Shown: piece after piece, positions 3,172-12,482 of the stretch | Layout of the letters: every line of letters begins with the position of its first letter | Numbering within the stretch: the first letter of the stretch is position 1 | DNA from: a virus | IMG/VR virus record: IMGVR_UViG_3300022743_000008 | Span: 1-40,654 of that record | Length of the DNA stretch: 40,654 bases | Direction: 5' to 3' (one strand) | The notes under the pieces: model-generated | Databases searched by the model: none | What the model saw: only the letters and a program-made list of their open reading frames with translations | Told to the model about the DNA's origin: nothing | Made by a program: the position numbers and the translations under genes

Positions 3172-4593
3172 TCACTCAAAGCCCATTTCTGCCTGCCCGG
3201 CAGGTTCGCCTTTGGCCCGGTAAAGCCCCCAAGCCGGGGCAAATTCGACAACCGACGTTCCGCGCTGGGTGCCGTAAAGCAGCGTATCGCGCGTTTTCCA
3301 GTTGATGATCTGGACCTCGTGTTCCTCGTCTCCGGGATGAACCGTTATTCCCAAGCCCGGCTTGTTGAAGAATGCCGCAGAGTCCGCCACGTCATATCCA
3401 GTGGGTGGGCGCGGCTTTCCCTCGCTCTTGATCTTGGATGGGTGCGCGACGATGCAAATGTGCGCCTCAAGAGACTTCGCCCAATTTCGCACGGTCTTGA
3501 TGGCGAAGTTGATATAGTTGGTCATGGACTCGCCCTTCTCGGGCAAATGCTCCAACTCGTTCCACGGGTCCAAGATCACCAGCTTGCAGCGGTCCCGAAC
3601 CACTAGTGTCCGAACCATTGCTTCCAGCCAGCCAAGGTGATGGTCCGCCTCGGATGAGGCGTGGACAATCCGCCAGCGCACGTCCAAATCGGCCACCAGA
3701 AGCCGTCGCTCATCATCCGATAGGGATTTCCATGCGCGATGGGTAGTCGATCTGGCAAGTTGGTCCCGAATACGGAAAGGGTGGGTTTCAAACCCGATCA
3801 TCCCGACCCGGACCTTCTCTGCCTTGGATATTTCATCAGCAACCCAAGTCACCAGTGTTGATTTACCGTGACCCGGCAACCCGGTCCAAACGCTGATTTC
3901 CCCCAATTCCAAAGCAATGACCCGATCAAACGGATCACGGCCAATCTTCAACACGCGCTGCGTGGACATTGGCGGCAAATCTGAAAAGCCGGTGATTGTC
4001 CCTCCCGGCGGGTCAATTCGCTTCGCCTCGTTCAGGCAGCGGGCAAGTGTTCCCTCGCCAAACAGCATCAGAACGTCGTTTGCGTCCTTGCACCCTTCCG
4101 GCCAGGTAGCGAACCGAACGTCATGCCCGGCAAGGATAGTCGCCACAGTCCGTGGAAGGCTCTCCCCAGCTTCATCTTGGTCCCCCGCCACCAGGACATA
4201 GGGAGACGCGAGAAGGGCCTCTAGCGCCTCTGTAATCGCCTCTGTCTTGTTGCCTTGGGCCGTCCATCCATCTGGTAGGGAAACCGCGCGCTGAAAACCA
4301 GCCTGAATGACACTCAGACAGTCAATCTCGCCCTCGGTAATCACGATGGGCAGGTTCAGGTCCACCGAAAGCGCGTCGATGTTGTAAAGGCCCCGGCTCA
4401 CGCCCTTGGTTGAGAGGAACCTCTTGTCCACCGTTCTGAATTTCGCGGCGACGTTCTTTCCGTTCACCCGATATGGAAACGCCACTGCCTGGCCCAGATG
4501 ATCGTGCTGAATTGCCCGAACTCCCATATCCGCCAAGAGAGCGCCGTCCAGTTTTCTCTGGCTTTGGAGCCACATCATCACGTCCTGAGTCAA
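3172..4593 (-). CDS. Toprim primase / DnaB-type replicative helicase (T7 gp4/Twinkle-like), zinc domain in a separate frame
   Basis: The protein unwinds the fork and probably makes primers. With the start at 4593 it has 473 residues: a Toprim domain (ITEGEID at 85-91, AGDQD at 136-140, KDANDVL at 169-175), then a RecA-like helicase core with Walker A GLPGHGKST (238-246) and Walker B LVILDPWNE (338-346). T7 gp4-like proteins normally begin with a zinc-binding domain; here that domain is encoded in another frame immediately upstream. I chose the TTG at 4593 because GGAAGGGAGGG ends 7 bases before it; a GTG/ATG pair at 4581/4578 is an alternative. The frame is closed by a stop about 60 bases further upstream, so it cannot include the zinc domain without a +1 frameshift. 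Confidence 0.92.
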   Translation of the reverse strand: MTQDVMMWLQSQRKLDGALLADMGVRAIQHDHLGQAVAFPYRVNGKNVAAKFRTVDKRFLSTKGVSRGLYNIDALSVDLNLPIVITEGEIDCLSVIQAGFQRAVSLPDGWTAQGNKTEAITEALEALLASPYVLVAGDQDEAGESLPRTVATILAGHDVRFATWPEGCKDANDVLMLFGEGTLARCLNEAKRIDPPGGTITGFSDLPPMSTQRVLKIGRDPFDRVIALELGEISVWTGLPGHGKSTLVTWVADEISKAEKVRVGMIGFETHPFRIRDQLARSTTHRAWKSLSDDERRLLVADLDVRWRIVHASSEADHHLGWLEAMVRTLVVRDRCKLVILDPWNELEHLPEKGESMTNYINFAIKTVRNWAKSLEAHICIVAHPSKIKSEGKPRPPTGYDVADSAAFFNKPGLGITVHPGDEEHEVQIINWKTRDTLLYGTQRGTSVVEFAPAWGLYRAKGEPAGQAEMGFE

Positions 4594-4786
4594 AATACTG
4601 CCCTCCCTTCCATCCGCAGTGATGACAAAGCCAAACAATCCCGTCCGATTTGAATGTCACACTGAGGCATGGTTCTCGCTTCTTTTTCCGGTGCGCGCTG
4701 CATTCTGGGCATAATGTGATAACCGTCCCGCTATTCCGTTTTACGGATATCCCCGCCTCTCTCAGAATTTCGTCGCTCGATTTCAT
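4322..4786 (-). CDS. Primase zinc-finger domain protein, overlapping the helicase gene
   Basis: The first about 62 residues are a primase-type zinc-binding domain: CPEC at residues 26-29 and CHHC at 54-57, with the usual 'KCLSV'-like strand between them. Such domains recognise the primer start site in T7 gp4-like primase-helicases. After GWKGG the frame runs on for about 92 residues of Gly/Arg/Ser-rich sequence that is simply the out-of-frame reading of the Toprim gene. The start at 4786 has GGGAGG 6 bases upstream. So either the phage makes a separate zinc protein with a junk-like tail, or ribosomes shift +1 near 4600 to make a full-length primase-helicase. A base error in GGGAGGG is a third possibility. 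Confidence 0.75.
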   Translation of the reverse strand: MKSSDEILREAGISVKRNSGTVITLCPECSAHRKKKREPCLSVTFKSDGIVWLCHHCGWKGGQYFDSGRDDVAPKPEKTGRRSLGGYGSSGNSARSSGPGSGVSISGERKERRREIQNGGQEVPLNQGREPGPLQHRRAFGGPEPAHRDYRGRD

Positions 4787-4931
4787 GCAGAACCTCCCAG
4801 CGTTTTTTGCCCTGCTCTTTTGCCGCTGCTGTTTCGGCCTGATAGCGCGAAAGCCCGCCTTCATATTCCATGATGGCCGCACGTTCCTCGAATTTATCCA
4901 GATCGGTCAATTTAATTTCGGCCCCGTCCAA
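4731..4931 (-). CDS. Hypothetical protein, 66 aa
   Basis: A highly charged helical protein (Glu/Lys/Arg-rich, e.g. FEERAAIMEYEGGLSRYQAE) without cysteines or membrane segments. It overlaps the DUF1376 gene upstream by 25 bases and the zinc-finger gene downstream by 56 bases, so the three are likely co-translated. Sitting between two replication genes suggests a replication accessory role, but nothing in the sequence proves it. Confidence 0.6.
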   Translation of the reverse strand: MDGAEIKLTDLDKFEERAAIMEYEGGLSRYQAETAAAKEQGKKRWEVLHEIERRNSERGGDIRKTE

Positions 4932-9139: not shown

Positions 9140-10231
9140 GTGTCAAATTGCCGGAAGTGCGGAGCAAAGAGGGTGACGAAGCGTAGGGCTGGCGAGTTCT
9201 TTTGCCAGCACTGCGGGATGCAGCCCGGACCCGCAGGTTTTGACCGGACGGGCCAACTCAAAGAGGTATGCAGCTTGATTAAAGACCTTCCTGATGGCGA
9301 ACTGATCCAAGAGCCGGGCTTCTACCGGATCAGCTTGGAGCGCCACCACTCGCAGCCCTGCGACGGACCGTCGATCACGTCCAGCGTTCTTCGCAAGATG
9401 GAAACATGGACCCCCGCCGATGTGTGGGCGTCGTCGTCCATGAACCCCGCGCGCACCGAGAAAGAGGATACGGACGCGCTGCGCAAGGGCCGGGCCATGG
9501 CGGCTTTCGTAGAGGGCGGGCGGGACTGTGTGCTGCAATCCTTCCTGCTTCTGCCAGAGGATGCCCCCAAGAGGCCCACAGCGGCCCAGAGAGGGGCCGT
9601 GGAGAAGGGAACTGCCCAGACGGCATCCATAGAGGCTGTGCGCTTCTGGGCCGCTGTAGAGGCCGATGGACGGCCCCTCGTAACCCAATCGGAAATGGCG
9701 GAAATCGAAGCCATGGGCGCGGCTCTGGTGGCGGACGCCGGTGCGGCTGCGGTGATGGAGGGCCTACCCGAAATAAGCATGGCTTGGCAGGACGAGGAAA
9801 CCGGGATTTGGCTTCTGTCGAGGCCTGACACCGTCGCCATGAGTGGGGTTCTGACCGATTACAAGCGCATGAACACCCAAGGTCGTCCGTTCAATACCCG
9901 GCTGGTAGACTCGCGGATCACCGAGCATGGTTATGACCAACAGATGGCCCTTGCCGCCGATGTGTTCGAGCGCCTGACCGGAAGCCGCCCAGAGGCCGCG
10001 ATTGTCGCGCAATGGGACAAGGCCCCTTACCACGTCGTCCTGCGGCCTATTTCCGACGAGGATTTGCGGATCGGCTCCCTACGGAACCGCCGCGCCCTGG
10101 TGCGGTTCAAGGAATGCCTTGAGTCCAATTACTGGCCCGGCCCCGGCGAACATGTGGGTGCGTATCAGCGCCCCGATTGGCAGCGCGAAATGCTGCTTCA
10201 ACAATTCCAGACTGAGGGAGTTTCCCCGTGA
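9140..10231 (+). CDS. RecE/exonuclease VIII-like PD-(D/E)XK nuclease with N-terminal zinc ribbon, 363 aa
   Basis: The protein should resect one DNA strand so that RecT can anneal the other. The core carries the PD-(D/E)XK signature: D230 in LLSRPDTVAM, then D240-Y-K242 in GVLTDYKRM, then Y265-D-Q-Q in the RecB-type motif. The segment LRKGRAMAAFVEGG (114-127) aligns with the motif that usually has a histidine, absent here. An N-terminal zinc ribbon (C4, C7, C22, C25) precedes the nuclease, which is unusual. Start GTG at 9140 with AGAGGA 7 bases upstream. Its stop overlaps the recT start, as in other RecE/RecT pairs. Confidence 0.85.
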   Translation: MSNCRKCGAKRVTKRRAGEFFCQHCGMQPGPAGFDRTGQLKEVCSLIKDLPDGELIQEPGFYRISLERHHSQPCDGPSITSSVLRKMETWTPADVWASSSMNPARTEKEDTDALRKGRAMAAFVEGGRDCVLQSFLLLPEDAPKRPTAAQRGAVEKGTAQTASIEAVRFWAAVEADGRPLVTQSEMAEIEAMGAALVADAGAAAVMEGLPEISMAWQDEETGIWLLSRPDTVAMSGVLTDYKRMNTQGRPFNTRLVDSRITEHGYDQQMALAADVFERLTGSRPEAAIVAQWDKAPYHVVLRPISDEDLRIGSLRNRRALVRFKECLESNYWPGPGEHVGAYQRPDWQREMLLQQFQTEGVSP

Positions 10232-11049
10232 CCGACCAATCACTTACCGCCGAACAGGCCCCGAAGTCCATCACCAATGCGAACCTGCAACAGGGCGGTT
10301 TGGTGGCGCTGATTCCAGCATCCCTTGAGGATGCGTTCCGCCTGTCAAAGGCGCTGGCCGCGTCCGGGGACATGGTTCCAAAGCCGTTTCAGGACAAGCC
10401 TGAAGCAACGATGGCGGCAATCCTGCGCGGGATGGAAATCGGACTCGCGCCCATGCAGGCCCTGTCATCCATCGCGGTCATCAACGGGCGGGCCTCCCTC
10501 TGGGGTGACGCCCTACCGGCTCTTATGTTCCGGGCTGGCCATACGGTCGATGTGGTGCTGACCGGAGAGGGCGATGACATGGTGGCAACGGCCACCTTGA
10601 CCCGTGGGGACAGCGGCACATCCTTCGTCCGCTCATTCTCTGTGGCGGATGCAAAAGCGGCTGGCCTGCTGGGTAAAGCAGGCCCGTGGACCCAATACCG
10701 GCCCCGAATGCTATCCATGAGGGCGCGGACTCTGGCAATCCGCGACGGTGCGCCGGATGCACTGATGGGCCTTCAGGTGGCCGAGGAAGTGCAGGACTAC
10801 GCCCCCATGCGGGATGTGACCCCTCCACAGTCCAAGATTGCCGAAATCGCCGCCAAGGCCCGCCAGAAGGCCACAGAGCCGCACTGGACGGCCATGATCG
10901 ACACGGCGGGGGCTTTCCCTGGGTCGGACGCCTTTGATGCTGGCGTGGCTGCTTTCCAGTCTGGCGAGGCGCGCGAGTCCTGCCCGCCGCTAGAGGATGC
11001 CGCCGACTGGCTGGGCGGCTGGGATGCGGCGAAGGGGGCGGCGGAATGA
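10228..11049 (+). CDS. recT: RecT family single-strand annealing protein, 273 aa
   Basis: RecT-type recombinase that pairs complementary single strands in phage recombination. Visible family marks are the N-terminal LSKALAASGDMVPKPFQDKPEATMAAI region, GLAPMQALSSIAVINGRASLWGD (a hallmark of this family: 'G..p..a...i..i.Gr..l..d'), and the downstream W-x-x-Y-x-x-x-M-L-x-x-R-A segment (about 153-167). The last 60 residues are variable. It overlaps the nuclease upstream and the DUF1364 gene downstream, forming a recombination cassette. Confidence 0.9.
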   Translation: MTDQSLTAEQAPKSITNANLQQGGLVALIPASLEDAFRLSKALAASGDMVPKPFQDKPEATMAAILRGMEIGLAPMQALSSIAVINGRASLWGDALPALMFRAGHTVDVVLTGEGDDMVATATLTRGDSGTSFVRSFSVADAKAAGLLGKAGPWTQYRPRMLSMRARTLAIRDGAPDALMGLQVAEEVQDYAPMRDVTPPQSKIAEIAAKARQKATEPHWTAMIDTAGAFPGSDAFDAGVAAFQSGEARESCPPLEDAADWLGGWDAAKGAAE

Positions 11050-11551: not shown

Positions 11552-11736
11552 GTGCGATTGACCGCATCGTTAAGGCACATGTGGCTGCTAGGTCTGCCCA
11601 ATATCACATCGGCAAGGCAGGCTTTTGCGTTGACGTGAATGACCGCCCCGCCGCCCTCGCATCGCTGACAAGCGCCCATGTCGCGGCGTTGGAACTGATC
11701 GAGGCGATTGTAAAAGCTAAGGAGGAATTGAAGTGA
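11548..11736 (+). CDS. Hypothetical helical protein, 62 aa
   Basis: A small Ala-rich helical protein (two long helices, 1-22 and 33-62). The GTG start at 11548 overlaps the preceding stop (GTGA), and the stop overlaps the next GTG in the same way. No family is recognised. Confidence 0.55.
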   Translation: MSAIDRIVKAHVAARSAQYHIGKAGFCVDVNDRPAALASLTSAHVAALELIEAIVKAKEELK

Positions 11737-12482
11737 AAGCGATCAAGGGATTTGACCGGAACCTGCAATGTCGCGGCTTCCAGTTTGAGGTTGGAAAGAC
11801 CTATACCGCAACGGGCAAGATCAAGGCTTGCGAGAATGGTTTCCATGCCATCCCGGAAGATGTGCATCCGTTCTATGTGTGGGAGTTTTACCCGGTCACA
11901 GATAGCCGCTTTTTCGCGGTGGAACTGGCTGGCAAAACGGACGCGGACGGAAACAAGGTCGCCGCTGAAATCCTGACTGTTGGCAAAGAATTAGGCATTG
12001 CTGGCCTTGTGGCTGAGGCAGTGGCATGGGTGAGCGCGCGAGCAACTGCGGGTGGTTCTGAACTTTCCAGCGGCTACGGCGCGAATATCGGGTCCAGCGG
12101 CGACGGCGCGAAGATCGGGTCCAGCGGCTACGGCGCGAATATCGGGTCCAGCGGCTACGGCGCGAATATCGGGTCCAGCGGCGACGGCGCGAAGATCGGG
12201 TCCAGCGGCTACGGCGCGAAGATCGGGTCCAGCGGCGACTACGCGAAGATCGGGTCCAGCGGCGACTACGCGAATATCGACTGCGATGGGAAAGGTGCGG
12301 TTGCCGCGAGTGCGGGCCGCGACACCAGATTCAAGGGAAAGGCTGGTGCATGGTTCAGCCTCGCCAGTTATGACGATGGCGGCAAGTGCAACGGCTTCGC
12401 AACCGGATGCGTCGGCCAAAACGGCATCAAGCCCGACACTTGGTATCGCGCCGAGGGCGGAAAACTGGTGGAGGAGAAATGA
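11733..12482 (+). CDS. DUF7666-like protein with a 9-residue beta-repeat array, 249 aa
   Basis: The N-terminal about 95 residues (KAIKGFDRNLQCRGFQFEVGK...CENGFHAI...) match a family found in many phages and named DUF7666 in recent Pfam releases; its function is unknown. Residues 112-183 are eight tandem 9-residue repeats of the type S-S-G-[YD]-[GY]-A-[NK]-I-G, which should wind into a small beta-solenoid. The C-terminal 65 residues form a globular cap with AWFSLASYDD. Repeat solenoids can mimic DNA or bind ice or ions; here a DNA-mimic or anti-host role is speculation. GTG start coupled to the gene upstream. Confidence 0.8.
   Translation: MKAIKGFDRNLQCRGFQFEVGKTYTATGKIKACENGFHAIPEDVHPFYVWEFYPVTDSRFFAVELAGKTDADGNKVAAEILTVGKELGIAGLVAEAVAWVSARATAGGSELSSGYGANIGSSGDGAKIGSSGYGANIGSSGYGANIGSSGDGAKIGSSGYGAKIGSSGDYAKIGSSGDYANIDCDGKGAVAASAGRDTRFKGKAGAWFSLASYDDGGKCNGFATGCVGQNGIKPDTWYRAEGGKLVEEK
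12066..12281 (+). repeat. Eight tandem 27-bp in-frame coding repeats
   Basis: Eight contiguous 27-bp units begin with tccagcggc and end with atcggg, coding the 9-residue repeats of the DUF7666-like protein. Units differ only at the [ctac/cgac], [ggc/tac] and [aat/aag] codons. There are no spacers, so it is not a CRISPR array. Unit number is likely to vary between related phages by slippage or recombination. Confidence 0.95.

What the first reader, a model, noticed from the sequence alone, without database searches (positions are those of the whole stretch)
4322..4786. Primase zinc finger and Toprim-helicase encoded in overlapping frames
A clean primase zinc domain (CPEC...CHHC, start 4786) and the Toprim/RecA helicase (3172-4593) lie in two frames offset by +1. 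The zinc frame stays open for a further 92 meaningless-looking codons. A strong GGAAGGGAGGG sits at the junction, exactly where it could serve as a ribosome site for a TTG start, or as the stimulator of a +1 frameshift as in prfB. Normal T7 gp4-like proteins have both domains in one chain. Either the phage makes a split primase, or it makes both fused and short forms from one locus, analogous to gp4A/gp4B by another route.
Basis: partly seen in the sequence, partly recalled or inferred. Interest (0 to 1): 0.65.

Follow-up and report, generated by a model that had tools for sequence, protein, structure and literature searches.

The report
Overprinted zinc-finger subunit of phage primase
Hundreds of phages, including this one, encode the zinc finger of their DNA primase as a separate small protein whose tail is written in a second reading frame on top of the helicase gene, and selection keeps that second frame open even though annotation tends to miss it.

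Summary
A primase zinc-ribbon ORF (4786-4322, minus) and a T7 gp4B-like helicase (4593-3172, minus) overlap by 272 nt in frames offset by +1. It is not an error: of 213 non-redundant relatives, 152 keep the same +1 overlap, 58 are fused (one side of one branch), 3 are split without the long overlap. The helicase has its own start (134 of 152; TTG in the window) and a Shine-Dalgarno made from the zinc finger's glycine codons. The zinc frame's tail is not meaningless: across 144 relatives the first 25 overlapping codons hold 0 zinc-frame stops, against 109 +/- 9 in synonymous shuffles; the third frame (156 vs 121) and fused relatives (49 vs 50) show no depletion. In one clade rare NNT helicase codons spell a C-terminal Trp-Trp-stop. 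No shift codon is conserved. Best reading: two overlapping genes make a split primase, the zinc subunit's tail being overprinted on the helicase gene and probably helping it dock. Expression and the tail's role are untested.

The parts
4322..4786 (-). Zinc-ribbon primase subunit ORF, 154 aa; residues 1-65 the ribbon, the rest a predicted disordered tail
   Evidence: 10 invariant columns incl. four Cys; homologous to the N-terminal ribbon of fused relatives, hhalign 99.6%, E 9e-24; model pLDDT ~90 for 1-60, ~50 after 70
4792..4797 (-). Shine-Dalgarno GGAGGT of the zinc ORF, 5 nt from ATG 4786
3172..4593 (-). Toprim + RecA/SF4 helicase ORF, 473 aa, TTG start, equivalent of T7 gp4B
   Evidence: Toprim_2 7e-11, AAA_25 1e-11; phrog_239 primase/helicase 3e-55; PDB 6n7i T7 gp4 residues 82-529, E 1e-23; fold match 5ikn/1q57
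4602..4606 (-). GGAGG Shine-Dalgarno of the helicase, made of the zinc finger's Gly-Gly codons (GGA GGG), 8 nt from TTG 4593
   Evidence: GGA is 46% of Gly codons here in relatives vs 9% in their helicase genes
4322..4593 (-). Overlap: the zinc subunit's C-terminal tail is read in one frame and the helicase N-terminus in the +1 frame
   Evidence: zinc-phase stop depletion 0 vs 109 in 144 relatives; hazard in the window's clade: 0 stops in 40 codons vs 38 expected

Best explanation
Two same-strand overlapping genes together make a split T7 gp4-type primase-helicase. The upstream gene makes a small primase zinc-ribbon protein. Its stop lies inside the helicase gene, so its C-terminal tail (about 40 selected codons in the window's clade, about 20-40 or about 110 in others) is overprinted on the helicase N-terminus in a different frame. 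The helicase gene starts inside the zinc gene, at ATG/GTG/TTG (TTG here), with a Shine-Dalgarno supplied by the zinc finger's own glycine codons. Supported by sequence statistics: two genes in fixed +1 phase, internal start with SD, selection for an open zinc frame. Inferred: the ribbon acts in trans on the helicase ring and its disordered tail (aromatic-ended in one clade) serves as a docking or DNA-contacting tether in place of the linker of fused relatives; the overlap also couples translation of the two subunits.
For: +1 phase in 152 of 213 non-redundant relatives, fused on one side of one branch. Zinc-phase stops 0 vs 108.7 +/- 9.1 in the first 25 overlapping codons of 144 loci; the other phase 156 vs 120.7; fused control 49 obs vs 50 exp over codons 0-19 of the same helicase region. 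T-ending helicase codons are not avoided where they make no stop. Short-tail clade: T3 at the two codons before the zinc stop in 22 and 23 of 38 vs 4.7 expected, giving WW*/GW*/WY* ends. Long-tail clade: raised synonymous conservation over codons 15-104 (1.17-1.33), about 1.06 after, fused flat, and stops enriched at codons 110-119, 29 vs 11. Start codon in 134/152 vs 21/58 fused; SD match of at least 4 nt in 87% vs 38% control, mostly 5-12 nt spacing. Exceptions L024, L286, L318 carry a free-standing zinc ORF with its own stop at or just before the helicase.
Against: No expression, proteomic or functional data. 18 of 152 relatives lack ATG/GTG/TTG at the expected place; some have ATT or CTG there, and a few (L053, L166, L215, L107) no plausible start nearby. 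Tail sequence is weakly conserved and tail length differs between clades; beyond about 40 codons the window clade's tail looks incidental. The Foldseek match of the zinc model is not significant. Loci within a clade are not independent.
Confidence: 0.8

Rival explanations
1. Programmed +1 ribosomal frameshifting near GGAAGGGAGGG joins the zinc domain to the helicase, giving a gp4A-like fusion besides the short form.
For: The offset is always +1; an SD-like element lies at the junction; a few relatives lack a canonical helicase start. Fused relatives show that the fused form works.
Against: No conserved shift codon (best position 21/158), no stop at the junction, SD spacing typical of initiation. 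Zinc frame selected open 25-110 codons past the junction and, in one clade, to end in a defined terminus. Three lineages have the zinc ORF closed by its own stop at or before the helicase.
Confidence: 0.07
2. The zinc protein is real and separate, but the tail has no specific role: the frame is kept open only because an early stop there would disturb the ribbon or because read-on is harmless.
For: Weak amino-acid conservation of the tail in the window's clade; predicted disordered. The decoupled L286 manages with 32 residues after the last Cys.
Against: The ribbon model is complete by residue ~65, yet selection extends 40-110 codons further. Tail ends are shaped by rare codons in one clade and synonymous sites are constrained across most of the overlap in another.
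Confidence: 0.13
3. Frame openness reflects nucleotide-level constraint around the helicase start (low structure, codon bias), not translation of the zinc frame.
For: T3 is somewhat low in the first 10 codons (116 vs 156 expected); initiation regions often have unusual codon choice (general knowledge).
Against: Depletion is specific to T followed by AA/AG/GA (0 vs 110) while other T3 contexts are in excess (386 vs 317); the third frame has more stops than expected; the effect reaches 40-110 codons.
Confidence: 0.02
4. Sequencing or assembly error in GGGAGGG, or a decaying gene.
For: The zinc frame ends in different-looking sequence; GGGAGGG is a G-rich run.
Against: Same frames in 152 relatives under 90% identical, and in loci from isolates (Paracoccus homiensis, P. 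laeviglucosivorans) and a complete chromosome (Sphingopyxis sp. PET50).
Confidence: 0.01

Closest known systems
T7 gene 4 primase-helicase (gp4A 63 kDa / gp4B 56 kDa)
   Same: Same domain order of ribbon, Toprim primase and RecA helicase; the helicase protein starts about where T7's internal-start form starts and matches gp4 residues 82-529. Both loci make a ribbon-less form from an internal start with its own ribosome site (PMC12593628).
   Different: In T7 the internal start is in frame and the ribbon stays on the long form. Here the internal start is in the +1 frame, so ribbon and helicase are separate chains and the ribbon gains an overprinted tail.
Fused relatives of this family (e.g. phage vB_RanS_PJN03 'bifunctional DNA primase/helicase', L080, L081)
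   Same: Homologous ribbon and helicase; sister group in the unrooted tree.
   Different: One continuous frame with a linker; no depletion of stops in the other frame.
Standalone primase-type zinc ribbon of jumbo phages
   Same: The primase ribbon is a separate protein (PMC7824862).
   Different: Their partner is described as DnaG-like; the passage read mentions no overlap. Here the partner is a gp4/Twinkle-type helicase and the genes overlap out of phase.
prfB (RF2) programmed +1 frameshift
   Same: An internal SD-like sequence before a +1 frame change (PMC5009743).
   Different: No conserved shift codon, no stop codon at the site, SD mostly 5-12 nt from a start codon.
Overprinted viral genes (same-strand overlaps, PMC8227390)
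   Same: Two proteins from one DNA stretch in different phases.
   Different: Here the overlap extends an old, conserved domain (the ribbon) with a new tail rather than creating a whole new protein (inference from the fused relatives).

Membership tests
T7 gp4 / Twinkle-type primase-helicase | RecA/SF4 helicase domain with Walker A | tested here: met
   GLPGHGKST in P0002; AAA_25 1.3e-11; PDB 6n7i E 1e-23; Foldseek 5ikn/1q57 E 1e-24 to 1e-27
T7 gp4 / Twinkle-type primase-helicase | Toprim RNA polymerase domain with EGE and DxD motifs | tested here: met
   Toprim_2 7e-11; TEGEID and GDQDEAG present, E87 and D140 invariant
T7 gp4 / Twinkle-type primase-helicase | C4 zinc ribbon at the N-terminus of the same chain | tested here: not met
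   Ribbon in a separate frame, offset +1, in 152 of 213 relatives; fused only in the sister clade. Filed as a split variant, not a full member.
T7 gp4A/gp4B two-form strategy | Internal start in the same frame giving a ribbon-less form | tested here: not met
   Internal start exists with SD but in the +1 frame, so no ribbon-containing long form follows from normal decoding
prfB-type programmed +1 frameshift | Conserved shift-prone codon, stop at the shift site, SD-like element close upstream | tested here: not met
   No conserved tetranucleotide (max 21/158), zinc stops 33-163 codons away, SD mostly 5-12 nt from a start codon
Same-strand overprinted gene pair | Both frames under selection | tested here: met
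   Helicase frame conserved as protein; zinc frame stop depletion and raised synonymous conservation
Same-strand overprinted gene pair | Both proteins made in the cell | not testable with these tools
   No expression data available
Standalone primase zinc ribbon (jumbo phage type) | Ribbon on its own ORF next to a ribbon-less primase | tested here: met
   but the partner is gp4-like, not DnaG-like

The most novel reading that the evidence does not exclude
The primase zinc ribbon of a large group of mainly alphaproteobacterial phages is an unannotated, exchangeable subunit of the helicase ring, held by a docking tail that arose by overprinting on the helicase gene when an ancestral fused gene was broken by a frame change; clades have fixed different tail lengths and, in one, a Trp-Trp C-terminus.
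Probability: 0.45. Interest if true: 0.75.

Novelty: new variant of a known kind. Interest (0 to 1): 0.62.

Why it matters
Where I could see annotation, these loci list a 'primase/helicase' without its template-recognition finger (phage KY940711, and a Microvirga plasmid whose gene table is incomplete), because the finger's gene is hidden in an overlap. If right, hundreds of phages have a two-chain version of the T7 primase-helicase. That gives a natural test of whether the zinc domain can act in trans, and a well-sampled case of how splitting a protein produces a new selected tail on top of an essential gene.

Tried and rejected
(1) Sequencing error or pseudogene: rejected on conservation. 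(2) prfB-like +1 shift: no shift codon, stop or spacing. (3) Shift at the distant zinc stop: stop distance 33-163 codons and no consistent re-pairing codon before it (TGG commonest, 19 of 158). (4) Chance openness from GC content: rejected by within-gene synonymous shuffles, the third frame and the fused clade. (5) Strong protein-level constraint on the whole tail in the window clade: not found beyond the first ~15 codons (ratio 1.29), apart from a rise at codons 60-89 around TEGEID. (6) The first pooled synonymous test was diluted across clades and stopped with an error; repeated per clade. (7) Pfam, NCBIfam and PDB sequence searches did not recognise the zinc ORF as a primase ribbon; homology was shown through fused relatives instead. 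(8) A viral scan with L107 returned nothing. (9) Paper searches found no report of this overlap; the library is open-access only, and one search failed on syntax.

Full report
Observation. On the minus strand an ORF from ATG 4786 to 4322 carries CPEC-x10-C-x13-CHHC, and a second ORF ending at 3172 carries Toprim and RecA domains. The helicase frame is the zinc frame +1. GGAGG at 4606-4602 lies 8 nt before TTG 4593; the zinc ATG has GGAGGT 5 nt upstream. The window is a 40.6 kb IMG/VR record with tailed-phage terminase, portal and tape-measure genes and, beside this locus, RusA-like and primosomal-protein-like genes.

The two proteins. The helicase matches T7 gp4 residues 82-529 by sequence profile (6n7i, E 1e-23) and T7 gp4 structures by fold (5ikn, 1q57). 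Its model (mean pLDDT 86.5) has its first helix at residues 5-12, so it starts at a domain boundary. The zinc ORF's first 65 residues or so are a ribbon (pLDDT ~90) and the rest is disordered. The ribbon is homologous to the N-terminal ribbon of fused relatives (hhalign 99.6%, E 9e-24). General libraries do not recognise it and the Foldseek search gave nothing significant.

Relatives. Scans of viral contigs and GTDB genomes gave about 350 loci. Of 328 with both parts found, 236 have the zinc ORF overlapping the helicase in the +1 relation, 87 are fused in one frame, 2 are in the -1 relation and 3 in the same frame with a stop between. After removing near-identical helicases: 152 / 58 / 3. On a FastTree tree the fused ones are one side of one branch (support 100) and the three exceptions arise singly among the +1 ones. 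The zinc ORFs of L024, L286 and L318 stop at or just before the helicase, 45, 32 and 42 codons after the last Cys, which argues that separate chains suffice. L010 has the ribbon farther upstream. Named isolates and a complete chromosome are among the +1 loci, so this is not an assembly fault.

Internal start. In the helicase frame, 16-40 nt after the last zinc Cys, 134 of 152 +1 loci have ATG/GTG/TTG (115 ATG) against 21 of 58 fused loci. GGA makes up 46% of Gly codons in the finger's CGxxGG segment against 9% in the helicase gene. Of 131 starts, 87% have an SD match of 4 nt or more (38% in control positions), mostly 5-12 nt away. A subset uses ATT/CTG or has no clear start.

The tail is selected. 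Synonymous codons of each helicase gene were shuffled within the gene. Over all loci the zinc frame runs 74 codons on average against 34 expected. In the first 25 overlapping codons of 144 loci there are no zinc-phase stops against 108.7 +/- 9.1; the third frame has 156 against 120.7. Helicase codons ending in T are avoided only where they would make a zinc-frame stop (0 vs 110; other contexts 386 vs 317). The same helicase region in the fused clade shows no depletion (codons 0-19: 49 vs 50). The stop hazard shows where selection ends. In the window's clade it is 0 against 38 expected in 40 codons and near chance later. In the other clades depletion continues, apart from the short-tail group, to about codon 110, where stops are in excess (29 vs 11). 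In 38 loci with short tails, mostly GC-rich genes use rare T-ending codons at the two positions before the zinc stop (22 and 23 of 38, 4.7 expected), producing WW*, GW* and WY* termini. In the long-tail clade synonymous conservation is raised across codons 15-104 and falls after the overlap; the fused clade is flat. Together these indicate that the zinc frame is translated through the overlap and that the tail matters. Loci within a clade share ancestry, so counts are not independent events.

Frameshifting. A shift at the junction would not need the zinc frame open beyond it; no shift-prone tetranucleotide is shared at one position by more than 21 of 158 loci; there is no stop at the junction; the SD sits at initiation distance. 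Compare RF2, with its conserved CUU-UGA site and SD (PMC5009743). A minor fused product remains possible.

Mechanism. Supported by sequence: two overlapping genes, internal start with SD inside the ribbon's coding sequence, selected tail. Inferred: the ribbon works in trans with the helicase ring, with the disordered tail replacing the covalent linker; overlap couples expression. T7 already makes a ribbon-less form from an internal start (PMC12593628), and separate primase ribbons are described for jumbo phages (PMC7824862). What I did not find in the papers searched is a ribbon gene overprinted on its helicase.

Annotation. In phage KY940711 the helicase gene is annotated and the zinc ORF is not. 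In the Microvirga plasmid CP016620 the gene table, which is incomplete, also lacks it, although the +1 arrangement is there.

Noticed in passing
window 4731-4910, minus strand: A small ORF (LTDLDKFEERAAIMEYEGGLSRYQAETAAAKEQGKKRWEVLHEIERRNSERGGDIRKTE) overlaps the start of the zinc ORF. A pattern-recognisable relative lies upstream of the zinc ORF in 23 other loci, in the same phase in 23 of the 24; in several it runs over 120 nt into the zinc gene, so a second selected overlap is possible.
   Followed up: partly
L046, L050, L113, L174 (ATT) and L120, L310 (CTG), about 22-25 nt after the last zinc Cys: Helicase frames without ATG/GTG/TTG at the usual start but with ATT or CTG there; L053, L166, L215 and L107 have no evident start. 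Rare start codons or an upstream start may be used.
   Followed up: partly
L024, L286, L318, L010: Lineages that undid the long overlap: the zinc ORF ends with its own stop before or beside the helicase, with a basic tail ending KRRFS, AKRGW or VKRSF in the first three.
   Followed up: partly
window 12066-12279, + strand: 27-bp tandem repeat, 7.9 copies, inside ORF 11733-12482, giving a glycine/serine-rich SGDGAKIGS repeat protein.
   Followed up: no
window 9140-11049, + strand: Exonuclease VIII-like and RecT-like genes on the opposite strand from the primase module.
   Followed up: no
L098 and L086 (genome contigs): Close relatives sit in MAGs labelled Verrucomicrobia although most of their kin are in Rhodobacterales; probably mis-binned phage contigs.
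   Followed up: no
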